From the NCBI RefSeq assembly GCF_000003815.2, contig NC_049983.1:25725003-25789002 (forward strand): a stretch of 64,000 nucleotides of DNA, given 5' to 3'. A program made the translations under genes and the position numbers. The stretch comes from Branchiostoma floridae. Its lineage: Eukaryota > Chordata > Leptocardii > Amphioxiformes > Branchiostomatidae. The first letter of the stretch is position 1. Each line of letters begins with the position of its first letter. Shown in pieces: positions 32,865 to 63,802 of the stretch. The notes under the pieces were generated by a model, which was given only the letters and a program-made list of their open reading frames with translations, was not told where the DNA came from and made no database searches.

Positions 32865-32939
32865 GTTCTGTCTGGGAAAAGAACATGTTATTAAAGACCG
32901 AGGTTGTACTATAAAATCATCCAATAAATTCGGCTAACG

Positions 32940-36954: not shown

Positions 36955-36960
36955 TTTATT
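36955..36960 (-). terminator. Candidate polyadenylation signal of gene B
   Basis: AATAAA on the minus strand, ~75 bp past the stop at 37,035. Confidence 0.5.
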
Positions 36961-37034: not shown

Positions 37035-37241
37035 TCAGCTTTTCAGCAAAAGTTTATAGATTGCAGCATCATTTCCACAACCTCTGGGTTCACCATCTAC
37101 CTTTGCTCCCAAGGTGTGTAGCAATGACCGTGCGCAATCATGGAGTGTACAGACGGCTTTGGCCCTGATGATGTCACACTCCTCCATGCTGCGGCCCTCC
37201 ATTGCATGCAGCTGGTCCAGGAGCGGCTCTAGGTGCCTCAT
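37035..37241 (-). pseudogene. Second CARD of gene B, out of frame
   Basis: The segment HLEPLLDQL ... SMEECDII ... CARSLLHTLGAK parallels the first CARD (VEPILNHL ... TVEECDVI ... CACALLDTMKAK). Its first helix (HPQLVQALI) lies in a different frame just upstream, and the protease frame stops at 37,238. Two single-base shifts within ~60 bp are needed to read through, with no splice sites suited to do so. Real decay and assembly error are both possible. Confidence 0.65.
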
Positions 37242-40200
37242 CGATCAGGGCCTGCACCAGCTGAGGATGATGTCTTGTTCTCTCTGTCATACAGCTCATT
37301 GGTCCGCTGTACTGGCACCATGTCAGGATCAATCTCCCCCAGGACTGACGGGAATGTCTGTTGTGCATCTTCTCCCTCCACCCCGGCTCGGTCTTGTGTG
37401 TACGCCATCCAGTAGGTCCTCTCCTGCTGACCCAGCAGTGATGGGGTCTGCGGCAGCTCCTTCTTAACGTGGTCGTACACGTAGTCGCGAAGTATGTCCA
37501 GACTCACGGCTCCTGTGTCCCTGGCCCGGCGCTGGAATGACTGGCAGTTCGGGCAGTTGTCCTGCTCACAATTGCCTCCCTGCAGGCCACTGATGATGTA
37601 CTTGGTGAAGACACTGTACTTTTCCTTCCTCTTCCAGGACTTCTGTGTGATTCTGCTGGACGCCCAGAGCACGGAACCTTCTGGAAGCTCATCTTTGTCA
37701 GACTTAGCCAGGTTTAACTTGTTGTCCAGTGGAAATTCTTCCTTGCCCTTTTCCTTCTCTGTTTCTCCACTGCTAGAACCATTCTCTTCTATGCCCTTTA
37801 TGGTGTAGACCTCAATGGAAGAAGCGTGACAGGCATCCAAGATGAAGAGTGACTTAGTCGCGCCACTTCCGCTTAAGATGTTTCGAAGTTTCTTGGACCA
37901 CACTGCGTATAATTTGTCTTCACGCCACTTTGAGAAGCAGAGGCACTGCTCTTTTCCATGGCCGCTGTGGTAGTAAATAAAGAACGTCTCCTGGCCTTCT
38001 GGAACTTGCTGAATCTGTGATGCTACTTGGGTAACTGCAGCTTGAACATCTGTGATGTCTGGAAGTAGCAGTAACTTCACGTTGTATTCCCTGGAAAAAT
38101 GAAAGTGATGGTTTAACCTTTAGGACACAACATATACAAGGGATAGTGTTAGTTGGGGAAATATTTAAACTTTAAAATGTGCTTATAACACACCGTTACA
38201 GCAAAGTGTTTTTTTCATTTTGAATCTTTTCCAAAATTGTTTCTTGCAAGCACAGTTCTAGACGTACCTCACACCACAGATGCTGGGATTGGTGATGACT
38301 TCCGTGAAGCCAATGGCATCCTCCACAAAATCCTCCTGGCCAACAGCAATGACGAATGTGTTGTACCCTGCAGCATAAAGTGATGGATCTTGCTCATCAT
38401 TGTCAGTAACGGAACCAAAGAAAATAAAAATTTCTACCTCTGTCATTATCTCTATTCATAGAAAAGTAGCCCAAATATACGTATGCTGTCCTCACCAAAA
38501 TGTTAAACCATAATCCTTCATAAAATTCTACCGGATCCATCTGACAAGCAAAACCTGTACACGTTAAATACAATGGGGTTGGGGTAAGACATTTATGGCG
38601 TGTATATCCTGGTAACATTGTTGTTTTAAGGTTAAAGTGCCATACCCAGGCCTGTTGTGATCACGCAGTGCTTGGGGCAGCGGAACCCCTCAGTCTGACT
38701 CTTCATGCAGGCAGCACACAACAAGAAGGCACATCCACAGGCCAGAGGGATGGGGCCTGCACGGGGAAGACAGAATCACTGTAAAAGTGACTGGACAAGA
38801 CTTAACAAAGTAACACTCCATATTGACAATGACTGCAGCCAATACCATTACAAAGTTGGTCGCAACATGACAAAAATAGGTGCAGGATTCATCATTAATG
38901 TTTCACTATTGGCCTTTTCCATCTGCTGCAAAAATGAATCATAAGACTGGTACTCACATGGCTTGCATTCCAAGCAGTGCATGCATAGGTCAGGGAACAC
39001 CGTGTGAAAAGATGTAAACACCCAACGTTCATCATCCGTCTTTGCCTTCATGGTGTCCAGCAGTGCGCATGCACAATCATGGGGCGTGCTGTGGTCCTTG
39101 ATGACATCACATTCCTCCACAGTCAGGATGTCACGTACCTGCAGATGATTCAGGATTGGCTCCACGTTCTGCAAGGCCTGGACCAGCTCTGGGCGGTACC
39201 TGGTCAGCAGGGTCTCCTCACACATCAGCTCACTGACCTGTTCCGTGAACCCGAGGGTGGGATGGAGGATTGTACCACCCTCTGTTGCTGCCTTACTGAT
39301 CTCCTCCTTTCCATAGGAGTAGAATTCCTCCCTGTGTTCCTTCAGTGCACGACCGCTGAGCACATTCTCCACTGTGCCTGTTCCTGGGCTGCACTCGTAG
39401 AGCACATCAGCGATGATGTTCTCCAGCTGCTGCAGCATCTTGCCACACTGTACCTTGTCACCCTGCGCACTCCGGACACAGATGTTGACTGCATGGCCGT
39501 CCGGAGAGAGTTTGATAAGACCTTCCACATCCCTGTCCGCACACTTGGCGCCATCTCTCCACAGCTGTGGGTGATTCTCCAGCTCCCTCATCAGGCGGGT
39601 CTGCACTCGGGGGAAGAACCCGGAGGAGAACATGTCAGTTGAGTCGGCACACTGGACTTGCTTCCCAAAGTAGATCACCTTTGGCTCTTGTGTGAGTTGC
39701 CACTTGTCAGGAGGCATGGTTTGTGTCAACAGCCCTGGGAAGACGTACTCTCGTCCGTTATAGGAGTGGCAGAGCTGGAACTCTTGCAATAGCTTGATCA
39801 CGAGATTCACGTCATCAGTAATGTCTTGGAACACTGTCTCGATTTCTGACCTGGTGATGTAGTCGTGAGTCCGACGTTTCCTTAACATGCGGGGAAGGGG
39901 GAAGTTGTCCGGTGCCATGACTGGGCCGAATACCTTTGTGCCAAGCCAGTTGGGCTTCAGGACAAGGATACGATCAGAAGTGGCCGGGGTGATGAACAGA
40001 AGCTGGATTTAAAACAGGTGACCAAGGCGTTAGAAAAGTGAACTGTGTGATTGCATGTAAATTAGACTTTGTTCCAGATTGTCATACAGCATGGCATTAA
40101 TCTACTCCACAACTTACCTTATTACACACACGATATCTTAAAAGTTAGTGTCAGCTTTGATGGAAAAAGTAATGCAGTGTTGTTCCGTTCTAGCCCGGCT

Positions 40201-43200
40201 GCCATCCTAGTTAGTTTACTAGGATCCTATGCAATAGAGAGGGAAAGCATGGGAGTACTAGTGAATAGACTAGGATGGCACTCCTGCTAGTTCTGCTGTG
40301 AGAACCATCATGATGGATATTATGGACCATGATAAGTTTTATTCACAGGTGAGGCCTTGATATCATACCTCTGCCAGATGGTGCAAGTATTGTGTGGATT
40401 TCTCGAGAAAGTCTTCAGTTACAAGTTCGTTGATTCGTTTGACCTCCTTGACATAGTTTTTCCACATCATCACGGGGAATTTGGGGGTGGTCCACTTCGT
40501 ACCCCACTCTGGTAGGAGCTCCATGATCTTTGCACACAGCACTGGCATGTCTCGTTGGTTCTGAAAAAGTGTGAATTACAACAAATTGGTACCTGGTTAT
40601 GACAGTGTTTTTCCTTAAAGTTTATATTTCAAAGCAATCAGTGTCTTAAACACTTAAAGTTCATGGACAAAATGCCTTTCGGAAAGACTAACGTCTTGAT
40701 GTCAATTTTTGTCTTTACGAATTGATACATTTTTTATACTCACTGGCAGCAAGGCCTCTCTCATCGTGAGCAGCAGACTCTTGAGTTTGTCCATCTCAGG
40801 TGTCCCAGTCTTCCTACAGTCCATCAGGATCACCTCGTTGGCGATACGGAGGTGATCTTTGAACTCTTCTTTCATCCCCTTAAGCAAACGGGCTGCTAGC
40901 TGTCCTGGTTGGGAAGAAAATGCCATATTTATATATACAATTTTTTTCAATCATACAGATGTTGCATAAACAAGCTCAGGTCGCCTACATGTTCTTCCGT
41001 TCTTTACGTCTATCCTCACCTCTGGCAGGTCTCACTTTGTCGCGATGGCTGGCCACCAAGATGACGTCAGGCTGCCGGTTTGGGTTGCAGGCCTTGATAA
41101 AACACAACCACCAGTGGACCTGTGACATTACATAACCAGCATCAACAAGCATGAGTTATTAGATCATTTATTTCCACTGCAATAAAGCAAAAAATCTGTC
41201 ACATGCAGTCACATATTTGTAAAAATGGAACAGGATATTCTGCTCATCGAAAAATATGACACGGTTTCTGAATAATCACATCAGTCATCTTCAGTTTTTT
41301 TGTGGCTCTCTTTGTGACAGATGCAGTTTACCCCTTGGAATGGATGATGCTATTTACCAAGAAAAGACCTTTCATGCAATGTCATATGAGCAATACGAGC
41401 TCTGGTTACCTGCTTTTCTTGGGTCTCACCATCGTCCATGATATTATACAGCACAATGAAGACGGTGTTCTCTGAGTTCATGAACATATTGTGGGTTACC
41501 GCGTACTCCGCCTGCCCAGCAAAATCCCACAGGCTGACCTCCCCCACCCCTGGAATACTGAACGTTTCTATGTCCACCCCTGGGGTGGGGTCATAAAGCT
41601 CCTCATCAGAAGACGGCACACTCTGTCCCTCAGTTGACGGGTCCTGGTTTGTGAAAGGATTACATTGATCCCAATTGGTTTTAAAAACTCATAATTCAAA
41701 ACATTTGCTAAAGGATTAAGTTCATCAATGACATAAACATTCTAAAAATGACCAATAACTTCGTAATTAAATGATTCTTTGCATTTTTCTTAATCTAAAA
41801 GGGATTAATCATAACTAAAGGTAACCTGCCTTCCTAAGACTCTTCTTCAGAGTAGACTTCCCATTTGTCTCATTTCCTCCCAGGAACACCTTAAACCTGT
41901 TGACCTTCACTCCGCCAGACTTCTGCAGCAACTCCTGGTAGGACTTCTCTTGTTCCGCCTTTCTCTCTGCTTCCTTTGAGGGAAAATGTTTGAAGATTGA
42001 GAACATAGAATCCTTCGACTGTGGGGCACAATTCAGAGTGTTCCGAACTATTCAGCGATTCTGTTGAGATTAACCAATGATATGTATCTTTTCTTTTATT
42101 CCAACCTTTATTTTACCTTGAAAATACATCTCTTTGGCCTGCGTTTTCCAAAAGGTCAACGGCGGAGGAGGTCAGGAGTCTTTCGCTTTGGATAGTAGAA
42201 GATATCTTTTGCTAAAGGTGATCACAGCATTTCAGTTTTTGTGCAAGAAAAATTTTATGGTAGTAGAAAAAACTATTGCAGATGATGGGTTTACCTTCAA
42301 GAAACGCTCTGTCTCCCAATCACGTGCATAGAAAAATGGTATCCTCCCTTGCTGTAGAGAGATATATGAGAGAAATACCACTTCAATAAATAAACGTTAT
42401 GTTGCTGATTACCTGCACCTGAATGACAACAATTAAGCAAGACAGAAATAGTAGTCACAGCAATTTTTTACATGATTGCCACCATTTTTGTTGCATGCTT
42501 AAAGATACAGTTCTTGCTGTTACATCACTGAATAAACACAAAAAGTTTGGAATATCTACTTTGGTAGATCATATTTCTGTTGTTTATGCATCAATTTAGA
42601 TGTATTATATATGAGTTGAAAGCTTGTGTAATTCCCTTTCCTATGGTATCAAAATTATTATGATTGTATACTCATGAAACAAGCACCAGGTCTGCTTACA
42701 TGAGTGGGTCACCAAAAAAAAGTGTATAAATTAACCTGTTCCTGTTAACACTGTATCGTCCTGTTGGTATTGGTGCGTGTGTCAGTGATTATTTCAATCC
42801 TTTTTTTTACGTCATGTTTGGTATGCAGAATATACAAGTTTGCTTTAGCACATTTGAGTAAAGAACGTCGGCCATTTTGGCAGTTGGATGGCCGAATCAA
42901 AGCGTGTATGGGGCAAGAGAACCACAAGCTGACATGGCAAGAGTAACTTTCACTGTTTGGTGGTGGAGGTAGCGTCATGGTGTGGGGAATATGCTGCCAT
43001 AGGAAATAAAAGACTTGCCATCATTCCAGGCGACTTCAATGTGAGGAGACTAACAAATTTCATTCTGCAAGATTACAACACCCGTCCACACAGAGCCAGG
43101 ACCATTGCAGACTATCTCTAGGATGGGATGCTGGGTACAGTCTTAGGATAGAATAGCCTTTCTACAGCTTATGGCTTATAAGCTCATTCCATGAATTTAC

Positions 43201-44120
43201 AGTAATAAAATACTTTACTCTAATGTGTTAAAAAGAAACTTGGATGTTCTGTATACCAGAAGCTATGTGAAAAAAGGATAGATTAAATTATTGTCACCTG
43301 TGGCCATAAAAACCGGACGATACAGTGTTTAACAGAAGTAGGGAAATTTGGGCACTTTCATTTGGTGACCCATTGCATAAGCAGGCCTTGCACTTATTCC
43401 ATGAGTTAACAATGATAATGAGTTTGATACCATTGGAAAGTAAATCACACGAGCTTTCTATTGATATATAATAACTTGAAATTGATGCAGGAACAACTGA
43501 AATATGATCAACTAAAGTTGATATTCCAAACTTTTTGTGCCAAGTTTATTTTGAAGACAATATGTTCATAATCTTGGAAAAAGTAAAGATTTGAATAAGT
43601 TTAACTAACAAACTAAAATTTTTTGTACTGACCAGATATATATAAGGGAATTAAGTGAAAAATTAAAGAACAATTCTGAAATCACAAGATTAATAAAGTC
43701 TTAAGGAGTAAATGTGAAGCATATATGACCTCATCTTTGGCAGTCACTTCTGCACCATTTTTCACTAGGAGGTCACAAGTCCCGGTGTGGCCGTATTTAG
43801 CAGCCCAATGAAGAGGTGTGGTCTGGTTGTGTGCAGAGAGGAGAGTCAGGGTCAGTACTGTAGTGGTGCCTTCATGAGGTGCCTTTACAATTGATCATCA
43901 AGAAAACAACAGGCAGCAAAAACACAAGAAACCCAACAGTTATAGTAGAAAACAAATTTCCCAGCTTTATTAAATATAACCTTTACGTATACACACACAG
44001 CCCTCCCGCGGGTCGGATCACGCTCCGGCCTTAGGGCGATCCTTCTTGCGGTCAGGCTTGTACCCCAAGTGATACAGAATGCACCGTGTTGTATTTTCTC
44101 TCTCTCTATATATATACATG

Positions 44121-44158
<38 letters not shown>

Positions 44159-47100
44159 CATATATATATATTATATACTAGTATAAATCTCAATATATTG
44201 ATTGGATAACCAGATTGGAAAAATGTTAAAAACATCAGGCTGTAAAGTAGTAAATTAAACATTGCTGTAGTCAATCTGTGCAAATGATATTATTTTTCTC
44301 CTTGCATTTTACCTTGCACCCCCTGGATACCATAATCCAGAAAAAGGGTCGTGCTATGTATTTTAATCATTCATACGTTTGTCCTAAACTGAAATACATT
44401 AGATTTTAATTTTCTATTCACATACATTTTGATATAATAGTTTTATAGTAAAGTCAATCAATAATTGTATTGTAAACTCAACCCTCTATACATTACATAT
44501 GTGCAGATACATTATACATTTCTTTAAGCAAAGTCAATCTTTTTGCATCCACCTTATTTGGGGGCGTAAGCTCCGCACCAGAGGAAATCAGAACCTCACA
44601 AGTCCCGGTGTGGCCCCAGCCAGCAGCCCGGTCCAGGGCTGTGTGCCGGTCCTGTATAGGGGGAAGGGTCAGGGTCAGTAGTGGTAGGTTTATTAGGGAT
44701 CATTAAAACAGCATTGATACATAAACAACTAGAAAAGCCAACCTTTTTTTTTATTGAAAAGAACATAATAATACAAATAAAAGTACGAGGACAAAGTGAC
44801 AGCGGACTCAAGTTATAGACTACTTATTTGAGCGCCGTCACTTGTACATAAATTGAAAATAACACCGTATATTACACAGGACTAAGTAAATAATTAGATA
44901 AGAATATACATACATGAAAATACAACAGTGAGAATGAGTCCATCCCCCCTATCGGAAGAAAAATAAAACAGAGAATGATGCCTGAACTTAAAAACGATTT
45001 AAAGATATTAATAAAGAAAGTTTATTTGCAAGTTCTTGCCCGAAGGGCTAATTGCAACATGAAACATACATAATATCATAATAAACAATCATACATAAAA
45101 TGAAATACATTGCTACAGATAACAATGGTGACAAGTGTAAACAAGTGACTATTCTATCAATGACATGGACTGCTGAGAGCTACAATCTACGCATTTGGGG
45201 TTTGACTTCTTTTCTGGAAGCAGTGGAAGACGAAGTGACCCACTTTTTCTATGATGAGTGGCTTATGTGATGTTAGCAGCGTTATAGTTTTGTTTTCGTC
45301 GGTAAGCGTTTGGAAATTTTTGTGGGTTTTGCATGCCTCTTCAAATAACTAATTTCTTTCCTGGTCGTTAGAGGGGCAGTTAGAAATAAAATGTATTTCG
45401 TCTTCCACATGTGTGGCCAATATAATTTCACAATTAACTTTAAAAGAACAAAACGGACTTCTACATAAGATTAGCATTTGTTTGGCATGGTTTGCAAGGG
45501 TACTAATAATATCAACTAAATGTTCCATTATAAAAAGCCAACATTTGAGTTATGTTGTCCACACAGAAATGCACTACTAGAGATAATTACTGACCCTTAT
45601 TGTCCCAACCAATGTAAGGACCTTTTCACAACCATGCATTTCAAAACAAGCGGTAAACTCCCTATCCCAAGACCCATCCACCAGTAAAAAATCATGAACC
45701 TGCTGCTGTCGCTTGCAGAAAATCTAACCTCTAACATTGAAGCTTCTGCAGCAGGGTTGTAGCCAGCACCCGTCCTTCAGTCCTTTGAAGGAATTTTTTA
45801 ACTGGGGACTGAAAAAAAATTGCCCATTCAGTCCTCTGTGAGCAAAATTTAACCCTAAAAATGCAGGAAATAGTATTTCAGAGGGTCTAGATTTCAAATT
45901 TTTCCTTGGGAGCATGCCCCCAGACCCTGTGCTAAATCAAAAGGATTGAAAATGATTTCTGGCTGGCTACAACCCTGTTCTGCAGTATACCTTAACTCGC
46001 CACTAGGAGGCACATTATCAAACTTGACCTTCCTTTTGACAACCCCTACCCATCCATCAAATATCATGCACAACTAGGAGTGGCACAAAACGTTTTTTGT
46101 TGTTGGACCGGTCCAGAAAAAAAGGACCTGAAAAAAATCAGTAGAACCGGATTTTGGAACGATTGGAAAATGAACAGATTATACCAGCAGGCACTCACGT
46201 CTTATTGGGAGTTAATAGTCATTCTTACCAAGATTTTACAGTCAAACTTGGTCTAAGGTAACAGCGGCAATTGGTGTTTACACAAAGATAGGATTTTTAA
46301 ATGCCAGTTGGACACTTTGCTAGATAGATTCCTTTGTAGCAAAATGGGCCATTGTTTTGAGCATCACCCATTCACAAGTCTTCACAGGTCCAGGTTCGGC
46401 TCTGTGTAGATAATAATACTTGCCACATCAGAAGTGGACTAGTGCAAGTCAATGCATGTGTACTAGTACTGTCAAGCATAACATTAATACATGTAAGTCT
46501 ATTCTTTTTACACCCATAGGGTCATTAAAAGTCCACTTGAAACATATATTACCTGATTTCTGGCGTTCACTTCAGCACCGGCACCAACAAGGACCTTGCA
46601 GGTCTCAGTGTGTCCTGGATATGCAGCTTTATGCAGGGATGTCCACAGGTCCTACACAGAGAGAAAGTTCAGTAGCCATGGGTTCTTCATGGGTCACTAA
46701 AATATACATGTACAATGTGGGTGCTAACAACAAAAGGAGAAAAATAGTTAATATTATTATAACGATTGATTACAAGGTGTTCAACCACTTAGCTCGAAAC
46801 GCCTTTGCTTTCCAAAATATCACCCTTGCCAAGGCCGATATCATCAACATCAATAAAAAGAACTGCCTACAAAAAAAGAACGGCCCAAATACATGGTCTA
46901 TGGAGAAACTACTCAAGAAGGGGGTTGCCCGAGATGATGGAGTCTATCGACATGTATGTGGAATGATCAAAATAATAGCAACCCAACTAAAGATGGGAGT
47001 TCTCCCGACTATTGTACTAAGGCCACACCAATTTAATTTGTTGATTCAAGGATGTTTTTCAAGTGAAAATGTAGCAAGCGGACATCATAAATGCAACGGG

Positions 47101-49930
47101 CAGGGAGGAAAACTTGAATATGACCATGTCCACTTCATGTGCACCAAGGCGTACACTTAGTCCTTGGGCTTTGTTTTCATAATGATTTTCAGCTAAGCAT
47201 ATTTTTTTTGTTTCTTGAAAATCCATGAACCAACATATCAAATTAGTTGGCCTTAAGACATTTTCTGACTTGCTAATGGAAGCCACATCTCGGTAGCTTC
47301 CAGGGTCACTCCTCTAACGTCAAGAGAAGAAGAAGAATGATTACAATTATCATATTTATTATTACAATCATTATCATCACATAACGAGACGACATTGATG
47401 GGTTCAAAATGAAATCTGTAATCTCACGTGCCAAAAGGATCCATGTAAATTTTCAAATGCATTTCTCAGAAATTCCACAAGTGAATTTACAAGTACTATG
47501 GAAGGATCTATGCGTCATACATGAATTTTTATGTCTCATACAGGTTAGTTTGGATAAGCTATATATGATCAATTAGTTTTTCTACTTAGCTGTACTTGTA
47601 TTGATTCGTCCTGCCAGTTCATTCTAGTGAAGCTGAAGAAGAGTGTTGGATGTCACTCGAAACGTACAGAAGTTTATCTCCATTTTTATCCAGTTGCAGA
47701 GATTGAATTGTATTTAAATATTGTTTACCTGGATGTCTAACCTTTATAAACACATTAAAAGTAAAGTCTTTTTTTCATCTATGTGGTCTTCAGGAGTCCA
47801 TGTAAAATATGCATTCATTACCTTATTTTTGGCATTCACATTGGCCCCTTTGCCAATCAAAAGCTCACAAGTCTTGGTGTTGCCCTTGTAAGCAGCATGA
47901 TGCAGGGGTGTGGACTGGTGCTGTACAGGGAGGAAGGTCAGGGTCAGTAGTGATGGATCATCAACCCAGATTTGAAACAACATAGCAGTGACATATAAAA
48001 AAATTTGGGTAACATAACTGGACAAATGCGAGGGACAAAGTAACATAGACAGCAGCGCCATGCAGTGTGGACTGGATCTGTACAGACTGGAAGGCCAGTG
48101 TCAGTGCTGGTTGAGTTACAAAGAAAATTTGAACACAGCACTAGCATTGGTATCTTAACAACTCACAAATGAGTCGAAATTCAATAACAAAAGCCACACC
48201 TATGTCACACTTATCATAGCAGTCACTTAACACTAAAGCATGTGGAGGTTTCATATACACTTCTGGCTCTTGCAGTCTCGTCTTCTACAAACTTTAAGTA
48301 ATAATGCAACATAGTTCTGAATTATACTTTCAATTGATTTTGTTTGAACAATTTTGCAATGTGTGTGTCTGCAACTTATCGCCAAAATGCTTTACTATTC
48401 ACAAGTCATGTACAGTCAAACCTATCTACAGCGGCCACTCAAGGGACTGGAGAAATGTGGCCACTATAGACAGGTGGTCACTATAGAGAAAATGTTGATC
48501 AATTGACCACGAACAATAAGTTACACATGATTTCAGAACCCACTAATCCTTCTCACCAAGTAACATTGTCTCGATCGTCTGAAAATTCAACTTACATGTA
48601 CGTGCCAAAGTCAGATCTACTGAAAATGATTGATATAGCCATGCAGAATACGTCGGTAAATTTGCCAACAAAGACTTGCACTCTAACGTTCAAGGCACGC
48701 GTACCTTCCACTATCGCAAAAATGTCCCTGTCTCCAAATCATCGCAAACTACGATTTTAAACCGGGCGCAGGATGACATACGGCCACTGTATGGTCATAA
48801 TAGGCAGCGTTTCTGTATCTACGGGACCGGAAATTGGGTGGCCATGGCCGCATTGAACATGTGACCGCTATAGACTATTTCTTAATGCTCAAGTCATAGG
48901 AAAAATCCAAAGGAACGACAAAAAGTGACCAGGTGGTCGCTATACAAAGGTGGCCGCTAATACAGGTTGACTGTATTGTGATACCTGCTCTGAATGAGAT
49001 CTGTTAGAAAGACATAGGGCATAATGTGACAGGGTTACCGTGACTACATTTGTCCGAGGACAGGTCAGGAGAAATCAGGACAGGGTTATTGCTTAACTTA
49101 CCTGGTCCCAAGCCACCACATCAGCGCCATGTTGGATCAACAGCTCTGCCACCTCAGTCTGTCCGAACGTGCTGGCCACATGCAGGGATGTCTGGTCACA
49201 CTGGATAGAACAACAGTTTGACTGGTTATGACATGACTATGCAGAGAAAGCTAAGGTACTACAGCATTTTTAACAAGTTGTAAATGTCATGTCCGAACGT
49301 TATCAAAATATAATACATCAACACAAGTGGCTTTTATGTCATTTACGCTTTCAGGACCCGGTGACAGCAGTCTCAGATTAAACATGGTAAACTTATTCTT
49401 ATCTTTAGGAAGGGAAATATACAAATGTTAAAATTCCTCTGATGGGGAATCTGTAGCAGTGTACAGGTCTTGTTCAAAATCTTGACTGATCACACAAACC
49501 AAGGATTTGTGTCGTTAACGTCCTTAGCTTGCACATATACAGGCTATTCATATTAGACAGTCCATGTCAGGTTAAACAAAGGCAAGGCAAGGCAGGTTAA
49601 AAATATTAATTTGCTTTCAATAACTTGTTCATAGTTTATTTACTTATCAATAAGCAAAAATACAATATGTAGTGATAGAATGTGCAGATAAAAAAAACGA
49701 GAAAACAAGAAAAATGATGATTGCTACTAATGCTACTGTTAGTTTGTTATCACACAGTAGCTAAGCAGAACTTCTGCTTTCACTTTGATCAAAGATCTGC
49801 CTCCTTACCAATCTTCCCCAGTCTCTCTTGGCTGTGATGTCCACCCCAGCCTTCAGCCCTCTCTCCACAGTCTGCTTGTCACCATACTGCACAGCTGTGT
49901 AGAACGTGTCCAGGTCCATCTTCTCACAAC
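37035..49930 (-). CDS. Gene B: ankyrin-Roc-COR-CARD-RING-like-C14 protease (-CARD) multidomain protein
   Basis: Exons, high to low: 49930-49809, 49200-49102, 47920-47822, 46651-46553, 44651-44553, 43822-43730, 42351-42295, 42018-41830, 41643-41410, 41119-41020, 40904-40744, 40560-40369, 40002-38958, 38756-38646, 38367-38268, 38090-37238 (end of the protease frame). Phases chain correctly throughout, with one non-canonical GC donor at 41,830. About 1,220 residues to the first stop, ~1,280 if the frame-disrupted second CARD counts. Order: ankyrin repeats, Roc GTPase with COR, CARD, Cys-rich RING-like zinc module, caspase-like protease, CARD. Inferred role: a GTP-regulated platform that recruits through CARD and acts through a protease. 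The first exon may start at an ATG at 49,945 (MLPTAG...) or be spliced (acceptor TTGCCCACAG). Confidence 0.85.
37238..38367 (-). CDS. Gene B exons 15-16: caspase-like (peptidase C14) domain
   Basis: Exons 38,367-38,268 and 38,090-37,238. The domain opens with the beta-strand YNTFVIAVG. The catalytic His lies in YYHSGHGKE (His codon 37,960-37,958) and the catalytic Cys in LFILDACHASS (Cys codon 37,831-37,829). The order and spacing fit the metacaspase/caspase-like C14 fold, in which SGHG and DxC form the dyad. An acidic Lys/Glu-rich linker follows the Cys strand, then CEQDNCPNCQSF, possibly metal binding. Both catalytic residues are present, so activity is plausible. Confidence 0.85.
38646..38756 (-). 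CDS. Gene B exon 14: RING-like cysteine module
   Basis: Together with the end of exon 13 (CMHCLECKP) this reads CLECKPC, ACGCAFLLCAAC, FRCPKHC. The pattern is CxxC-x9-CxC-x4-CxxC-x10-CxxHC, similar to a RING or treble-clef zinc site with a CGC in place of the usual CGH. If functional it could give E3-ligase-like or structural zinc binding. Entry phase 1 and exit phase 1. The donor (CTGG|GTATGG) is moderate. Confidence 0.6.
38958..40002 (-). CDS. Gene B exon 13: COR C-terminal half and CARD
   Basis: 1,045 nt. Begins LLFITPATSDRILVLKPNWLG, typical of the COR region that follows Roc. The winged-helix-like part (ITRSEIETVF ... LLQEFQLCH ... YVFPGLL) lies in the first third. Residues from LLTRYRPELVQAL to DERWVFTSFHTVF (39,222-38,974) form a CARD-type death fold with the conserved T-EE motif (TVEECDVI). 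Ends in phase 1. Confidence 0.82.
40190..40290. repeat. ~100-bp imperfect inverted repeat in gene B intron
   Basis: 'ctagcccggctgccatccta' pairs with 'taggatggcactcctgctag'. A probable tiny MITE. Confidence 0.6.
40369..40560 (-). CDS. Gene B exon 12: start of COR domain
   Basis: 64 codons, phase 0 both sides. NQRDMPVLCAKIMELLPEWG leads into VMMWKNYVKEV, the 'P-x-M-x-W' type motif opening COR domains. Confidence 0.75.
40744..41119 (-). CDS. Gene B exons 10-11: Roc G4 region
   Basis: Exons 41,119-41,020 and 40,904-40,744. They read QPDVILVASHRDKV, where SHRD takes the place of the usual NKxD/THxD guanine-specificity motif. The region IANEVILMDCRKT then reaches the G5 position. The Asn/Thr to Ser change at G4 may alter nucleotide preference. 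Confidence 0.7.
41410..42018 (-). CDS. Gene B exons 8-9: Roc GTPase P-loop and switch II
   Basis: Exon 8 (42,018-41,830): MFSIFKHFPSKEAERK linker, then VFLGGNETNGKSTLKKSL, a P-loop of GxxxxGKST form. Exon 9 (41,643-41,410): acidic linker, GVDIETFSI, then VSLWDFAGQAEYAVTHNMFM, the DxxGQ switch II typical of Roc domains in ROCO proteins. A canonical GT donor at 41,825 would be phase 1 and give a stop. AAG|GCAGGT at 41,830 keeps phase 0 and suggests a GC-AG intron. Confidence 0.82.
42295..49930 (-). CDS. Gene B exons 1-7: ankyrin-repeat region
   Basis: Exon 1 encodes a capping repeat (FYTAVQYGDKQTVERGLKAG). Exons 2-5 are 99 nt each, one ankyrin unit per exon (e.g. TSLHVASTFGQTEVAELLI, TPLHHAAYKGNTKTCELLI). 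Exon 6 is 93 nt; its expected acceptor position reads CAC instead of CAG, and AACCAG 6 nt further in is the likely site. Exon 7 (57 nt) is a half repeat. All junctions are phase 0. Introns 2-6 hold MITE, hAT and Tc1-like insertions. Confidence 0.85.
42528..43548. mobile_element. Long-TIR Tc1/mariner-like relic in gene B intron
   Basis: Arms of ~240 bp (42,528-42,775 and 43,313-43,548) are inverted copies, sharing 'aaaaagtttggaatatc' and 'gggtcacc'. Between them the plus strand holds broken transposase: GGGSVMVWG and then YNTRPHRARTIADYL, the Tc1-family motifs around the second Asp. Several stops interrupt it. Confidence 0.78.
42830..43145 (+). pseudogene. Tc1-like transposase fragment
   Basis: Frames read RIKACMGQE, SVMVWG and NTRPHRARTI with stops and frame changes between. 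Clearly non-functional. Confidence 0.7.
44098..44172. repeat. CT, CA and TA microsatellite cluster
   Basis: (tc)n, (ac)n and (ta)n runs follow each other inside a gene B intron. Confidence 0.95.
44660..45740. other. Gene B intron, no further gene
   Basis: AT-rich, with an oligo-T tract at 44,745. 'gttcttgcccgaagggcta' at 45,034 looks like a repeat end but no boundaries were found. Confidence 0.35.
45752..45977. mobile_element. hAT-like MITE, 226 bp
   Basis: CAGGGTTGTAGCCAG ... CTGGCTACAACCCTG, with a perfect 8-bp duplication TTCTGCAG (45,744-45,751; 45,978-45,985). It carries the 'gggagcatgccccc' subterminal module shared with the larger elements. Confidence 0.88.
47019..47255. mobile_element. 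MITE, GGCCACACC family
   Basis: 'aaggccacaccaatttaatttgttgattca' pairs with 'tgaaccaacatatcaaattagttggcctt'. Sits in a gene B intron. Confidence 0.7.
48413..48973. mobile_element. TA-flanked MITE (CAGTCAAACCT ends), 561 bp
   Basis: Ends CAGTCAAACCTATCTACAGC and the complement near 48,973, with TA on each side. The corresponding place in gene C (revcomp of ~57,705-57,725) has no such insertion, so the empty site is visible and a TA duplication is supported. Confidence 0.82.
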
Positions 49931-56611: not shown

Positions 56612-59600
56612 GTTGTGAGGAGATGGATCTGCACAAGTTCTACACGGCTGTGGAGTACGGTGACGTGCAGACTGTGAAAAAAGGACTGGAGGATGGAGTG
56701 GACATCAAGGCTAAGAGAGACTGGGGAAAATTGGTAAGGAGGCAGATCTTTGATCAAAGTGAAAGCATCTAAGTTCTGCTACTGTGTGGTAACAAACTAA
56801 CAGTTTCCTGTTGTTTCAGTTTTTTATCTGCACATTCTACATGTACTCCTATGCATTCTATTTTTGCTAAAATATAAAACTATAAACAAGGTAAAGTATT
56901 GTTTTAAACCTGGACTGTCTAATGTAATACTAATAGCTGTGACAGTGTACTGTAAATGCAGAAACTTTCGCAGTGATTTAATGTTCGCGTTTTTTCCCAT
57001 GGCAGTAAGAGACTACAGTGCATGGTGCTACCGCAAACTTAAAACCACCACGAAAAGTCCTTTTTTCTGCTACCGCGAAATTAAATCCCTGCGAACCTAA
57101 ATGCATTTACAGTACATGTATTTGCAAGGTAAGGAGGTTAAAGACACAAATCCTTCGTATGTGCAATATGTCAGATAGTCAAGATTTTGAGCAAGACCTA
57201 GACACTGCTACAGATTTTCCATCTTTTAACATTTTTAAATGTACAGCAGAAATTATTTTCCTTCCCAAAGATAAGAACGTTTAATCTGAGACTGCTGTAA
57301 CTGCGTCTTGAAAGCGTAAATGACTTAAAAGTGAATCATTAAACTTGACAAGGTACATTTGTACAACACCACTTTTGTTGAATTGTTATATTTTGATAAC
57401 GTTCAGACATGACGTTTACAACTTGTTAAAAAGTCTGTAATACCTGTCTGTAGTAATGTCATAACAAGTCAAACCATTGTTCTATCTAGTGTGAGCAGAC
57501 ATCCCTGCATGTGGCCAGCACGTTCGGGCAGACTGAGGTGGCAGAGCTGTTGATCCAACATGGCGCTAATGTGGTGGCTTGGGACCAGGTAAGTTAAGCA
57601 ATAACCCTGTCCTGATTTCTCCTGACCTGTCCTCGGACAAATGTAGTCACGGTACCCATCACAACATGTCCTATGTCTTTGTAACAGATCTCTTTCAGAG
57701 CAGGTATCACAATATATGACTTGTGAGAAGTAAGGTATTTTGTCCATCCTCCTACGCACGGTCCCAACGGCTAGCTGACTGCTCAGCCTATTGGGCCCTG
57801 CTATCCCAGGCCCTACCCCCAGGTATTATGATTGTCGCCACAAACTCGCCGCCCTGCTTATAAATATTAATGAGCTTACCCTTATATGGGCAGTCAGCCG
57901 TTGGGATATTAATGAGCTTACCCTTATATGGGCAGTCAGCCGTTGGGAATCGGGCGTAGGAGGATGGTGCTATGTAAGACGTAACATGATGGNNNNNNNN
58001 NNNNNNNNNNNNNNNNNNNNNNNNNNNNNNNNNNNNNNNNNNNNNNNNNNNNNNNNNNNNNNNNNNNNNNNNNNNNNNNNNNNNNNNNNNNNCGGGCCTG
58101 GGATAGCCGGGCCCAATAGGCTGAGCAGTCAGCTAGCCGTTGGGACCGTGCGTAGGAGGATGATTTTGTCCAGACACGCACATTGCAAAATTGTTCAAAC
58201 AAATTGAAAGTATAATTCAGAACTATGTTGCATTACTATTTTGTAGAAGATTAGACTGCAAGGGTCAAAAGCTTAAGTGTACATGAGACCTGCACTTGCT
58301 TTACATGTACATGTACATTCCTGTGAAGTGACTGCTGTGATTAGAGTCACTCAGTGACATAGGTGCGGCTTTTGATATTGAGTTTCAACTGAGTTTTGAG
58401 TTGTTAAGATACCAGTGATAGTGCTGTGTTCAAAACTTAAACCACTCCTGCCTCTGGCCTTCCAGTCTGTACAGATCCAGTCCACACCGCATGGCGCTGC
58501 TGTCTGTGTTACTTTGTCCCTCACCTTTGTCCAATTTTATTACCCAAATTTTTTCATATGTCACTGCTATGCTGTTTCAAATACTAGTTGATGATCCATC
58601 ACTACTAACCCTGACCTTCCTCCCTGTACAGCACCAGTCCACTCCCCTGCATCATGCTGCTTACAAGGGCAAAACCAAGACTTGTGAGCTTCTGATTCGT
58701 GCTAAGGGTGATGTTAACGCCAAAAATAAGGTAATGCATGCATGTTTTACATGGACTCCTGAAGAACATATGGATGCAAAAAAAGACTTTCCTTGAATAC
58801 ATTTATGAAGCATGAAAGCTCATTTGTGTTGATGTAGTACATATTGAAGATTTTCCACTGTCTTACATTGTTTTGTACAACACCAAAATTAGCTTACCTC
58901 GAATTTTCATTTGCACTTGCGCCGATCTTCTTCAGGAGTGACGATTCAGTTACTCTGATCACGTGACTTAGAGACACGTGATTCTAGTAACGAATCGTAA
59001 ATGCCTGGCAGGCGATATCGGCCCCCGTCTCTGTTGAGTGCCGGCTGATGTGCTCTTACACATGTATGTAGATGGCCTCCTTTACCCCCCTCGCAAAGTA
59101 ATCCGGTGCGGTGTCCAATATTTGTACTAGGTTAGACATCCATGGAGGTAAACAATATCTAAATATGATTCAATCTCTATAACTGTATGAAAAGCAGAGA
59201 TTCACTTCTGGACATTTTAAGTGACATCCATCACTCTTCCTCAGCATCACTAGAATGGACTATTTTTCTTTCTTTTTTGTTGGCACCCAAATTATGTATC
59301 AATGCTGTTTTAGTGACCATTCACTGACCCATGATGAACCTATCACGACTGATCCTGACCTTCCTCCCGATGTTCATGTAGGACTGGTGGACACCCCTGC
59401 ATAAGGCAGCTTTCCCAGGACATACCGAGACCTGCAAGGCCCTGATTGATGCTGGTGCTGAAGTGAACGCCAGAAATCAGGTGATATGTGTTTCACGTGG
59501 ACTTTTAATGACCCTATGGGTGTAAAAAGAATAAACTTATTAATATTAAGCTTCACAATATACATGCATTGTATTGAGTATGTTCTTGCACTTGTCTAGT

Positions 59601-62600
59601 CTGCTTCTGATGTGGCAAGTATTATTTTCTACACAGGTTGTACATACCTGTCCAGACCTGAACCTGAACCTGATTGTATATGAAAACTTGTGAATGGGTG
59701 ATACTCAAAACAATGGTCCATTTTGCTACAAAGGAATCTACTGTAATTCATTTTGTCTTCTCGGCATAAAAGTTTCACGTTCTGAGAAAATTTAACTTGT
59801 TCTTGAACTAAATGTTCACGGTGGCGGAATTTGTGCGTAAAAAAAGGTGGAGATTTATTTGTTATCAGTAATGATAAGTTCACTTAAGGTAGGATTTCAG
59901 GGTGGCTGAGGAGTTTTGGGGGGTGTTTTTGGTCTTCAAAAATTACCATCTTAGATAATGTATGGACCTTGATTTTTTCTAAGGTAGTACCCTAACGCAT
60001 AAAGATAATTTATGCAATTTGGTATGATGTCACAATGACGTCATCAACTACTTTTAGGCCACGCCCATTTTTAGAAAAAAAGCCTAAAAAGCCTAAATTT
60101 TGACTTGTATTTTGTCTGTTATTATTGAAACTTTTCAGAAATGTGCATAATAGTGATTTGAATAGATCTGCGCGTGGATTTTATCATACCTTGTCATGCT
60201 GATTTTTTATTAATTTTTTTCCTGAAATTTTAATTACCCCTTAGCTAACAGCATTTGGGAGCACTAAATAGCATTGTTTTGCGTCAGGAGCGCACGAAGT
60301 TTTTCCTTACAGGGTAAATTTCATAATAAAACTTATTTTACACATTTTCGATGAACAGTTTTTCAAAAATTAGGCTGTAAAAATCAAGTTGTTGTGGTAG
60401 TAGTGACGTAATCCACTTTTACAGGTTGTAAAAAGACCAAAGTGATGTTTTTGAGGTCAAATTTGAATTCAGCATGTGCCAAAACCCCTGTATACTAATT
60501 TTTTTTCTTGTATCTTCAAGGATAGGGAAAATATGGTGATTTTGCATATTTAATTAGTGGACTCTGATTTTATTACCCCTGGAACTCAATTATTCAGGAT
60601 TATTCATCATTTCTGAACTAGATGTATAAATTTCAGGACAATAATTCAAATCAACATATTATAAAACCCCTGTACACCAATTTTTTTCCTTGTATCTTGT
60701 ATGAGTACAGAGATATTGTAATCTTGCATATTTAATTAGCTGATCAAGAGAAATTATGCATAATTTTCAGGCCTTTCAATGGCCATAACTCTCTAACGGT
60801 ATGTCCGATTTTGTTGAAATAAAAACCATTCTATTTGTTTTACTAAGACCTATCCAATGATATCAAGTTTTAAAAGTTATGATGAGTTTGAAATTTTTGC
60901 GTAATTTTAGACAGCTACTTTGACCTTGAATTTTGACAGACAAAAAGGAACATTTGATGGGAAAGTATGTTAGATTATGAAAATAGAGTTACATAGAAAA
61001 TAACATTGATAGTTATTTTTTGGAAAATATCATTTTGAAATTTTGCTCAGCCACCCTGAGATACTACCTTAACAGTCGTCACCGTGAAAACCGTGAACAT
61101 TTGATTCCGTGAAACAGGAATTACAGTATTTGGCGAAGCATCCGACTTCTACTGGCATTTAAAAATCCTATCTTCATGTAAAAAACACCAATTGCTGCAT
61201 GCTGTTACTTTAGACCAAGGTCTATTGTAGAAAAATAGAAACTTGGTAAAACTAGCTATTGTCCTCTAATTTTCTTGTTACTAGTATTTTCTTGTACCGA
61301 TAAGCCCCCAAAGACACGAACGCCTGCTGGTATAATCTGTTGATTATCCAATCGGTCCAAAATGCGGTCCACTGATTTTTTTCAGGACCGATTTTACTGG
61401 ACCGGTCTAACAAGCAGCGTTCCCGCCAGGCATACGTCTTTACGTCTTTGGACGCATTTTTTTCTGGAAAGACGCACTCGGCTCGGCTGAATGCGTCCAT
61501 AAAAAAGTCTGAAAGGAAAGGCTGACCTGTACCACAGTGTACAAAATGTATCTGGAATCTTTAAAAAAGATCTTTCTTTATAAGAAGGAATCCTAGTATC
61601 CTACCTTTACAATTTATACTTCAAATTCTTCACTTTCCGGTCATCCCAGTAGTCTTGGCATAAGGCGGAGCGCGACACGTTTTACAACTAGCGGACCCAT
61701 GTACGACACTCCCAGCCACGCGCTAGAGCCGTCCGTTGCGCAATGTAATATTTTGTAGTCCGTGAAAAACATCTGACAGTCAGCATTCTTTAACACTTAA
61801 AGTATTCTGATATTAACATGATACTAACTTGCCCTCATTTTCACGTATTTGTTAAAGATTTGTGGGCAATGCTAGTATTGAACGAACAAACTGTTCTGCG
61901 CGAGTGCTGCACATCTCAACAAAAGTTCTCACGCTGTGGGCAGTTGATTGGCAGTCGGTATTTTTGACAACAGGCCGCCGACGCCAAGCAGTCTAGATTG
62001 GCCACCAGGTCCAAATCCAATCATCGTAATAACCAATCAGCATTCGATAAATGTAATGTTACACTCTGTCATTGGTCACCGGGAAAAAAGTTACCGAGTA
62101 TTAGCGCACGTGACGTTGGTAGCCGCCGTGTCGTCTGGCAACTTGTGTTTCCTCTCTAGCTGCTAACAATTTACTATTAAAGTTTCCCCATTTATCCAAG
62201 TTAGAAAAACGTGCGCGGTAAATAAGTGAAGAATTCAAAACTATACACTTTATTTCTTATTTCCAAAATTTCTTTTTTTTCAAAAAGACAAAATTTGCGG
62301 CAGAAAAGGGGTCGCAATATTGTTGTCAGGCGTCGATCGAGTCGGTTGTGCACTAACGTTGGCCTCCGTGGCACATGGCGCGGCACGCCCCCCTCCCCAG
62401 ATGGATCGTCGATCGCAGCGCCCAGCACGTTGGGACGTCTTTCTGGCTACTGCTTCAAGGCTACACCGGCACTGATCACTGCCAAAGAGGCAGCAGACCG
62501 TCCTCCTTCGAGTAATGTATAACGTCCTTGGTCTATTTAAAAAGAAATCTAGCCAAAGACTTCACTCCGAAAACGGGGTTACCTGAGGTCGCAGGAAACA

Positions 62601-63802
62601 AACGCACGCTCGTGGAAAATGACGGCGCGGCCTTGTAAAACCCCACCGATTCGAAAAATTTGAGTAAAATCATCGGGCAAAATAGAAAAAAACACAAAGT
62701 GTGATGGTGCCGTTATTTTATCGTCTCGGAAAACTACTTGATGCGGGAGGGCGCAATATCGATCACAGGAGGTAGACACTTTTTTATTCAATGACGGAAA
62801 AAAATTGGCAGAATTTTTCCATGGGTTGACGAACTGGCTAGAGCCCAGTTTCGAAGCATCAAAAATCCCAAATTTTGATTTTGAAAATGGGAGTAAAAGA
62901 GGCAACCGACGTCCAATCTCAAGTGCATGATTTTCCTCTCAAATTGCAGGAAATTGTGTTCTAGAGGGTTTGAAAATCCAAATTTTCCCGGGGGAGCATG
63001 CCCCCGGACCCCCCTAGAATGCGAGCGCCTGCGGCGCTCGTTTCGCGCCTCCGGCGCTCATTACGCCCCTCCCAAATATTTGGGCGCATACTTTCAAGAA
63101 CCTGGCGGGAACGCTGCTAACAAGAAAAAATGTTTTCATACTGGTACACCGTACTGGCACCCACCCCTAGTTGTGCATGATACAGTGTATTTGGTGGATG
63201 GGTAGGGATTGCAAAAAGGAAGGTAAAGTTCACTAATGGGCCACCTAGTGGTGAGTTGCGGTACATCAGCTGAACTTTAAGGTTGGAGTTAAAATGTACA
63301 ATGTAGGGTTTTGGGTGCATGGTTCTGAAAAGGTCCTTGAATGTGTTGGGACAATTTTTCCTTTTTGTCCATTTCCTTTCATGATCTTCCCTTTTCCAAG
63401 AAGGTTATGTTTTCAGTTGTGCCATGGCGCAGTAGCTATGGTGTGGGTCTGTATGTATGTCAACAGCATAACTTGAGAAGGTGTGGACTTGAGAAGTAGC
63501 TGTTGTGGAAAGGAATGTCAAGTTATGAAATGGTTAACCTGCCATTTTCCTACAGTACTTAAGCAGGCTGTGTGTGTACGTTCATTTGTCTGTGGACAAC
63601 ATAACTCAAATGTTGGCTTTTCTAGTTGTTGATATATCAATGCTGTTATAATGACCCCTCGATGAAACCAACAATACTGACCCTGACCCTCTTCCCTGTA
63701 CAGGACAAGCACACAGCACTGGACCGGGCTGCTGGCTGGGGCCACACTGGCACTTGTGAGGTTCTGATTTCCTCTGGTGCTGAGCTAAACCCCCCAAATA
63801 AG
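56612..63802 (+). CDS. Gene C: ankyrin-repeat half of a gene-B paralogue (runs off window)
   Basis: Exons: 56612-56733, 57490-57588, 58632-58730, 59382-59480, 63704-63802, each after the first 99 nt and phase 0. Their order and sequence match gene B exons 1-5 (MDLHKFYTAVEYGDVQTVKKGL; TSLHVASTFGQTEVAELLIQ; TPLHHAAYKGKTKTCELLI; TPLHKAAFPGHTETCKALI; TALDRAAGWGHTGTCEVLI). An in-frame ATG at 56,602 (MSTGCEEMDL) is an alternative start; otherwise ACAG at 56,611 is an acceptor. Introns keep gene-B homology, interrupted by a TTAA-flanked element and a hAT element absent from gene B. A Roc-COR part is expected beyond 64,000 but cannot be seen. Confidence 0.85.
57745..58162. mobile_element. TIR element spanning the assembly gap
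   Basis: CATCCTCCTACGCACGGTCC ... and its complement, with an 8-bp duplication ATTTTGTC at 57,737-57,744 and 58,163-58,170. Inside are two direct ~40-bp repeats ('attaatgagcttacccttat...') at 57,867 and 57,907. The 100-N gap lies within. Gene B lacks it at the matching place. Confidence 0.82.
57993..58092. other. Assembly gap (100 N)
   Basis: Exactly 100 N, the usual placeholder for a gap of unknown length. The palindromic element around it probably caused the break. Confidence 0.99.
59888..61068. mobile_element. TTAA-flanked DNA element, ~1.18 kb
   Basis: GGTAGGATTTCAGGGTGGCT ... and the complement, flanked by TTAA (59,884-59,887 and 61,069-61,072). TTAA duplication is the piggyBac hallmark, but the termini do not start with the common CCC, so the family is uncertain. 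No transposase frame. Absent from the corresponding intron of gene B. Confidence 0.75.
61415..63116. mobile_element. hAT-like DNA transposon, 1,702 bp, non-autonomous
   Basis: CAGCGTTCCCGCCAGG ... CCTGGCGGGAACGCTG, with a perfect 8-bp duplication CTAACAAG (61,407-61,414; 63,117-63,124). The right end holds the GGGAGCATGCCCCCGGACCC module. No intact transposase. It interrupts gene C's intron 4. Confidence 0.9.

What the first reader, a model, noticed from the sequence alone, without database searches (positions are those of the whole stretch)
37035..49930. Single gene predicted to join ankyrin repeats, Roc-COR GTPase, CARD, RING-like zinc module and a caspase-like protease
Sixteen exons chain in phase on one strand. 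They carry P-loop GGNETNGKST, switch WDFAGQ, a COR opening, a CARD, a Cys-rich CGC/CxxC module, SGHG and DACHA dyad, and a second CARD relic. ROCO proteins and death-fold proteases are usually separate. Here sensor, GTP switch, adaptor and protease would sit in one chain, like the all-in-one switch-effector proteins of conflict systems. This is the best candidate in the window for an undescribed system.
Basis: partly seen in the sequence, partly recalled or inferred. Interest (0 to 1): 0.92.

Follow-up and report, generated by a model that had tools for sequence, protein, structure and literature searches.

The report
Lancelet GTPase switch with built-in protease
A gene from what is probably a lancelet appears to encode one protein that joins a sensor, a GTP-driven switch, a death-signalling adaptor and a protein-cutting enzyme of the bacterial or plant kind, a layout that resembles self-destruct switches used by bacteria.

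Summary
On the minus strand 16 exons chain in phase into 1198 codons: ankyrin repeats, Roc GTPase, COR, CARD, a Cys-rich RING-like module and a C14 protease. Roc-COR aligns over about 350 residues with LRRK2. A neighbouring copy has 16 of 16 exons, a second 15 of 16, a third exons 9-16. The protease shows purifying selection, dN/dS about 0.3.

(1) The protease is not a classical caspase: its dyad is HSGHG/DACH, a bacterial conflict-system model fits it better than Pfam C14, and the classical caspases tested from this genome do not match. (2) Cys-rich module and protease form a cassette found five times: four behind Roc-COR-CARD, once behind Death and kinase exons. (3) ROCO plus C14 is not unique: bacteria have it in print, and one locus read here is LRR-Roc-COR beside classical caspase exons.

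The second CARD is a frame-broken relic. Most likely this is an intracellular immune or death switch whose protease is set off by GTP-controlled, CARD-driven assembly. Function is inferred; no RNA or structure was available.

The parts
49809..49919 (-). Exon 1: start ATG and first ankyrin-like repeat (MDLDTFYTAVQYG...)
   Evidence: same exon at 75.7% identity in copy 2 and 73.0% in copy 1; an acceptor CCACAG|CAGG just before the ATG is shared with copy 2, so an upstream untranslated exon is likely
43730..49200 (-). Exons 2-6: one ankyrin repeat each (49200-49102, 47920-47822, 46651-46553, 44651-44553, 43822-43730)
   Evidence: Ank 123.1 bits, 5 stretches
42295..42351 (-). Exon 7: short linker
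   Evidence: found in copy 1, not found at threshold in copy 2
40744..41973 (-). Exons 8-11: Roc GTPase region, aa 220-432 (41973-41830, 41643-41410, 41119-41020, 40904-40744); P-loop aa 251-260, DFAGQ 307-311, SHRDK 369-373
   Evidence: (Roc 40.6 bits, aa 247-372)
38958..40560 (-). Exons 12-13 (40560-40369, 40002-38958): COR, then CARD aa 761-819, then the first cysteines of the Cys-rich module
38646..38756 (-). Exon 14: rest of the Cys-rich RING-like module; invariant ligands in the five copies read C-x2-C-x5-C-x5-C-x-C-x4-C-x2-C-x9-C-x2-H
   Evidence: RING identity unproven
37238..38367 (-). Exons 15-16 (38367-38268, 38090-37238): C14 protease, His959 and Cys1002, Asp1000 two before the Cys; tail to the stop
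37035..37244 (-). Second CARD relic, out of frame, in the 3' region
   Evidence: (26.4 bits with one stop); also out of frame in both C5 neighbours
36955..36960 (-). AATAAA polyadenylation-like signal, the only A[AT]TAAA found between 37238 and 34001 on this strand
56623..63802 (+). Exons 1-5 of the divergent neighbouring paralogue (copy 1), which continues past the window end

Best explanation
This is one gene for an intracellular signalling protease. SHOWN from sequence: ankyrin repeats, Roc-COR, CARD, Cys-rich module and a metacaspase-type C14 protease in one in-phase exon chain, with the same order in other copies and purifying selection on most segments. INFERRED: the ankyrin repeats bind a ligand or guard a host protein; GTP loading of Roc-COR changes the oligomeric state; the freed CARD polymerises with CARD proteins, perhaps the many sister ROCO-CARD proteins; crowding activates the C-terminal protease, which should cut after Arg or Lys. 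Cleavage then triggers death or inflammatory output, probably in defence. The Cys-rich-protease pair behaves as a cassette found on two different signalling chassis, most simply moved by exon shuffling.
For: 16 in-phase exons. 16 of 16 exons in copy 1 and 15 of 16 in copy 2 (whose script accepted only hits in rising order; the unfiltered hits show the same order); exons 9-16 in C6a, where the fetched stretch begins at exon 9. Exon 14 opens inside a codon and has no Met before its cysteines, so it is not a natural gene start. In copy 1 the intron between exons 15 and 16 is gone and the frame runs through. C14 dN/dS 0.29, 0.30, 0.28 against the three ROCO-linked copies, upper 95% bounds 0.43, 0.42, 0.41. 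The protease exon and the Cys-rich exon were searched apart and hit the same five loci. NCBIfam bacterial caspase_w_EACC1 52 bits against 44.9 for Pfam C14 on the same 267 residues; 6 of 6 classical caspases of this genome gave no NCBIfam hit. A profile of the five copies scored 41.0, 39.1 and 30.4 bits on 3 bacterial caspases; of 8 classical ones 7 were listed, at 0.0 bits or less, and one was not listed. Fifth copy follows a Death domain (34.3 bits) and kinase pieces that score 95.2 bits when joined. 28 of 55 COR loci have a CARD downstream.
Against: No RNA or protein data. COR-A and COR-B fall below Pfam cut-offs. No structure could be predicted. 52 bits is far below that model's cut-off of 140, and NCBIfam holds prokaryotic families only, so no eukaryotic metacaspase model was compared. 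The bacterial comparators were picked by similarity to the query, and plasmid tblastn hits were weak, E 9e-4 at best. dN/dS of the Cys-rich module is 0.53, 0.16 and 0.47 with upper bounds 1.62, 0.76 and 1.27, so constraint on it is not shown; CARD is less constrained, 0.42-0.49 with upper bounds 0.75-0.93. C6a has a frame break in the protease and reads DACY; C6b reads DSCM. The kinase join was chosen by eye; of its exons only one matched a kinase model alone, below cut-off. The immune role is inference.
Confidence: 0.55

Rival explanations
1. The protease is mainly a self-processing regulator: it cuts the chain to release the CARD or ROCO part, as proposed for constant caspase domains of bacterial EACC1 systems, rather than killing the cell by cutting other proteins.
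For: Best-scoring named model is the EACC1-associated caspase; the published proposal for those systems is autoproteolysis (PMC7159879, passages). A charged linker of about 35 residues (roughly aa 1013-1050) lies inside the C14 domain.
Against: No cleavage site is identified, and the linker differs in length among copies.
Confidence: 0.22
2. Two adjacent genes: an Ank-Roc-COR-CARD gene and a separate Cys-rich-protease gene, wrongly chained.
For: In 8 of 11 sister loci read, the open frame ends after one or two CARDs with no protease in that frame, and the cassette occurs once without ROCO.
Against: Intron phases fit; order is the same in further copies; no start codon before the cysteines of exon 14; none of the five cassettes found stands clearly alone; part of the Cys-rich module lies in the CARD exon itself.
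Confidence: 0.06
3. A decaying duplicate with no function.
For: Broken second CARD in three copies; protease frame break in C6a; unconstrained tail, dN/dS 0.92 on 29 codons.
Against: The window copy has no internal stop, the coding matches in copies 1 and 2 have none, and protease dN/dS is well below 1.
Confidence: 0.05
4. A DAPK1-like housekeeping death or stress regulator rather than a defence protein.
For: Ankyrin repeats, Roc-COR, then a death-fold domain is also the DAPK1 order (ankyrin part recalled).
Against: No kinase and no Death domain in the chain and a large family (55 COR loci). Roc-COR is closest to LRRK2 among solved structures, but that says little, as a solved DAPK1 Roc-COR may not exist.
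Confidence: 0.12

Closest known systems
Bacterial AP-GTPase (Roc)-COR conflict proteins with caspase effectors (PMC8195603, section 15 read)
   Same: Repeat sensor, Roc-COR switch and exchangeable effectors including caspase; several paralogues per genome
   Different: LRR sensor in bacteria, ankyrin here; CARD and Cys-rich module are not mentioned in the section read
Amphioxus LRRs-caspase hybrid genes (PMC2575513, passages) and the LRR-Roc-COR locus with QACRG caspase exons found here (L049)
   Same: ROCO beside C14 in the same genome
   Different: LRR sensor and classical caspase; that the L049 kind is the one in the paper is my inference, and one gene at L049 was not tested
DAPK1 group of ROCO proteins (PMC6337361, passages)
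   Same: Roc-COR then a death-fold domain; no LRR
   Different: No kinase here; CARD instead of Death; protease added
MALT1-type (type 1) paracaspase (PMC5978004, passages)
   Same: C14 enzyme tied to death-fold signalling; non-Asp specificity expected
   Different: MALT1 is Death-Ig-C14; here DxCH and a ROCO chassis
Bacterial EACC1-associated caspase (NF047832; system in PMC7159879, passages)
   Same: Best-scoring named C14 model
   Different: 52 bits against a cut-off of 140
The 45 amphioxus caspases, seven of them of unknown type (PMC3196919, passages)
   Same: This protease may already be counted among the seven
   Different: The passages seen name no ROCO or ankyrin architecture

Membership tests
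ROCO (Roc-COR tandem) | Roc GTPase with intact G motifs followed directly by COR | tested here: met
   Roc 40.6 bits; continuous match to LRRK2 Roc-COR, E 5.2e-10; COR-A/B below Pfam cut-offs
DAPK1 group of ROCO | Kinase before Roc-COR and a Death domain after it | tested here: not met
   No kinase or Death match in the 1198 aa; DNA upstream of the ATG was not scanned with profiles
LRRK group of ROCO | LRRs before and a kinase after Roc-COR | tested here: not met
CARD | Pfam CARD above cut-off | tested here: met
   34.9 bits, cut-off 23.9; 56.6, 38.9 and 55.6 bits in copy 1, copy 2 and C6a
Classical caspase (C14A) | QACxG active site and Asp preference | tested here: not met
   DACHA, not QACxG; 7 of 8 classical caspases listed at 0.0 bits or less on the five-copy profile, one not listed; cleavage preference untested
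Metacaspase/orthocaspase type (C14B) | His-Gly and DxCH motifs | tested here: met
   HSGHG and D-x-C in 5 of 5 copies; DxCH in the window copy and copies 1 and 2, DACY in C6a, DSCM in C6b; meaning of the motif from PMC5756287 passages
Metacaspase/orthocaspase type (C14B) | Cleavage after Arg/Lys | not testable with these tools
   Predicted from the Asp two before the Cys; pocket residues from PMC4357240 passages, the correspondence is my inference
Bacterial EACC1-associated caspase | NF047832 above curated cut-off 140 | tested here: not met
   52 bits; 41.6 and 37.4 bits in exon pieces of copies 1 and 2
Type 1 paracaspase (MALT1) | Death domain and Ig domains before C14 | tested here: not met
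   definition from PMC5978004 passages
RING finger | Cross-brace ligand spacing and profile match | tested here: inconclusive
   RING-like spacing (consensus recalled) in five copies, no Pfam match, TRIM RINGs only at E 4.6-4.8
Bacterial AP-GTPase conflict system | LRR sensor, Roc-COR and effector in one prokaryotic protein | tested here: not met
   Ankyrin sensor in an intron-rich gene of a 513 Mb genome; works like, not a member

The most novel reading that the evidence does not exclude
An animal lineage took up a bacterial conflict-type (DxCH) caspase, paired it with a RING-like module into an exon cassette, and plugged that cassette into two unrelated immune chassis, ROCO-CARD and Death-kinase. 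It thereby rebuilt the bacterial Roc-COR-caspase self-destruct design, while a second ROCO lineage in the same genome acquired a classical caspase.
Probability: 0.3. Interest if true: 0.82.

Novelty: new variant of a known kind. Interest (0 to 1): 0.64.

Why it matters
A C14 protease with metacaspase motifs in a chordate, built into a GTPase switch, would put a basic-residue protease where Asp-cutting caspases are assumed. One cassette on two chassis makes modular rewiring of death signalling testable, and the parallel with bacterial conflict systems bears on how animal cell death was assembled. In eight searches of a held library of open papers no listed title, abstract opening or passage that I read describes this architecture; I read passages or sections of 11 papers, not whole texts, and the library lacks most subscription papers.

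Tried and rejected
A scan of prokaryote genomes with the C14 alignment matched 45 stretches but no confirmed relative. PDB sequence searches with C14 gave nothing significant. The Cys-rich module gave no Pfam hit and only TRIM RINGs at E 4.6-4.8. PADLOC gave a weak generic caspase match, 19.2 bits. Plasmid tblastn gave six places at 23.7-29.3% identity, E 9e-4 to 0.9; five are annotated as caspase family protein and the best-scoring one is not annotated. I fetched four of the six; two of these lie beside EAD1 genes, two do not. Three of the six were used as bacterial comparators. The ankyrin dN/dS for copy 1 paired wrong exons and is replaced. The C6b dS of 2.84 is saturated and not used. A tree of 16 C14 rows split the five copies plus bacteria from classical caspases at 100/100, but the tool warned of long branches and the bacteria were hand-picked; illustration only. 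The Roc family search scored 150 of 370 candidates and did not list the window's own Roc exon, so its positions are a lower bound.

Rejected: two separate genes; plain caspase; unique ROCO-protease fusion.
Full report
WHAT IS THERE. On the minus strand I chained 16 exons, coordinates, into 1198 codons with one terminal stop. Every junction keeps phase; 14 of 15 introns are GT-AG and one is GC-AG. On the joined chain Pfam finds Ank, Roc, CARD and Peptidase_C14 above cut-off, COR-A and COR-B below cut-off in the right order. Roc-COR matches LRRK2 in one piece over about 350 residues, so I take the tandem as real. An AATAAA lies 278 bases past the stop.

IS IT ONE GENE. A search of the genome found five places with this protease, and a separate search with the 37-residue Cys-rich exon hit the same five. 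In copy 1, which starts at window 56623 and runs divergently, 16 of 16 exons occur in order; in copy 2, 15 of 16, the missing one being the 19-residue exon 7; in C6a the fetched 10 kb begins at exon 9 and holds exons 9-16 (the script accepted only rising order, the lists were not so filtered). Exon 14 opens inside a codon and has no Met before its cysteines; the first cysteines of the module sit in the CARD exon. In copy 1 the last intron is gone and exons 15-16 read as one. Against the window gene, protease dN/dS is 0.29, 0.30 and 0.28 for copies 1, 2 and C6a, with upper bounds 0.43, 0.42 and 0.41. Ank, Roc and COR give 0.21-0.40. CARD gives 0.42-0.49 with upper bounds 0.75-0.93. The Cys-rich module gives 0.53, 0.16 and 0.47 on 43 codons with upper bounds 1.62, 0.76 and 1.27, so constraint on it is not shown. 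The tail after the protease gives 0.92 on 29 codons (all). On balance a functional single gene; RNA is lacking.

WHAT THE PROTEASE IS. The dyad is HSGHG/LDACHASS. All five copies keep YYHSGHG and LD-x-C-x2-SS. Classical caspases read QACxG, as the eight fetched here do (QACQG). DxCH is given as the metacaspase motif, and C14 members other than caspases are said to cut after basic residues (PMC5756287, passages and section 8; PMC4357240, passages). The best-scoring named model is bacterial caspase_w_EACC1, 52 bits against 44.9 for Pfam C14 on the same residues, though its cut-off is 140 and the library is prokaryotic; 6 of 6 classical caspases of this genome gave no hit. A profile of the five copies scored 41.0, 39.1 and 30.4 bits on three bacterial caspases; of 8 classical ones 7 were listed at 0.0 bits or less and one was not listed. 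The bacteria were chosen by similarity, so this is support, not a test of origin. PMC5756287 says metacaspases are absent in animals but that early animals have p20-only relatives; PMC5978004 (passages) reports type 2 paracaspases in porifera, placozoa, ctenophora and cnidarians. An old animal origin therefore remains open.

A CASSETTE ON TWO CHASSIS. The fifth copy (L036 and L013) has no Roc-COR match in the roughly 11 kb held upstream. There the cassette follows, on the same strand, a Death domain (34.3 bits), a weak UBA-like stretch (13.0-14.5 bits, below cut-off) and kinase pieces. Scanned singly, one kinase piece matched at 24.6 bits, below cut-off, and others not at all; joined by eye without a full splice check they score 95.2 bits. 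Then comes an exon ending in WCMCCLSRKPC and the Cys-rich exon. Among 87 genome matches to the COR-CARD exon I counted 55 COR-bearing loci, leaving out 32 short, fragmentary or CARD-only rows; 4 of the 55 have the cassette. By position 28 of 55 have a CARD downstream on the same strand, 27 within 1.8 kb of the COR start and one at 5.3 kb, using 45 of the 149 CARD rows, so this is a lower bound. Of 11 sister loci translated, the open frame ends after one CARD in 2, after two in 6, before any CARD in 2, and one was not read; Pfam confirmed the CARDs in the 4 scanned. After the protease, the C5 copies run on into a stretch that in the window copy aligns with the linker and second CARD of a sister gene, 71% over 297 bases in L022, but the second CARD is out of frame in all three. 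C6a and C6b have a stop right after the protease. The simplest history, inferred, is insertion of the cassette into a tandem CARD array followed by loss of the second CARD from the frame.

NOT UNIQUE AS A KIND. I compared 24 of 147 Roc rows with 48 of 94 C14 rows. At six loci a Roc exon lies 2.4-6.1 kb upstream of C14 protease exons on the same strand: contig C14 at 1985811, 2018967, 2034894, 2933357 and 18608512, and C18 at 10463791/10465031. The one read, L049, is an LRR-Roc-COR open frame of 1468 codons followed by caspase exons with QACRG; that they form one gene was not tested, and LRRs were seen only there. PMC2575513 (passages) already reports LRRs-caspase hybrids in amphioxus. Bacterial Roc-COR proteins carry at least 24 effector types including caspase (PMC8195603 section 15). 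PMC3196919 (passages) counts 45 amphioxus caspases, seven of unknown type, which may include this protease. PMC12373286 (passages) lists caspases among gene families prone to presence-absence variation in lancelets. So the kind is known; the variant, which I did not find in print within the searches named, is ankyrin sensor, CARD, Cys-rich module and a DxCH protease.

HOW IT MAY WORK. A bacterial Roco protein cycles between dimer and monomer with GTP (PMC5714945, passages). I propose that ligand binding by the ankyrin array tips this cycle, CARDs then assemble with sister CARD proteins, and the protease is activated by proximity. Only the parts are shown; the order of events is inference. Self-processing is the main rival (PMC7159879, passages).

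VERDICT. The architecture is well supported, the protease is under selection and the unit is copied; function is untested. The Roco review passages (PMC6337361) define three groups by domain order, and this protein fits none of them.

Noticed in passing
L049 (contig C14:2032000-2041999) and five other loci listed: LRR-Roc-COR open frame of 1468 codons followed by caspase exons with QACRG; five more Roc/C14 pairs by position only. ROCO plus caspase may have been put together twice in this genome.
   Followed up: partly
L036 and L013 (C6:18745000-18761999): Death domain, weak UBA-like stretch, kinase pieces, then the same Cys-rich-C14 cassette on one strand: the cassette on a second chassis.
   Followed up: partly
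window 25474-28050, + strand: Six more ankyrin exons like those of the gene (best matches 58-74% identity); no Roc or COR match was found between 1 and 37000: a fragment or another gene.
   Followed up: no
window 30217-32933, - strand: Two long open frames (358 and 501 aa) that read by eye as a leucine-rich-repeat, Ig-like cell-surface protein.
   Followed up: no
window 41828-41829, - strand: Intron 8 uses a GC donor, and copy 1 has the same GC donor.
   Followed up: partly
C6:404513-405133 (L014, L034): The C6a copy of the protease has a frame break, a TGA right after the domain, and reads DACY at the active site.
   Followed up: no
genome-wide: At least 55 COR-bearing ROCO loci, many in clusters on C5, C6, C12, C16, C158 and C333.
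   Followed up: partly
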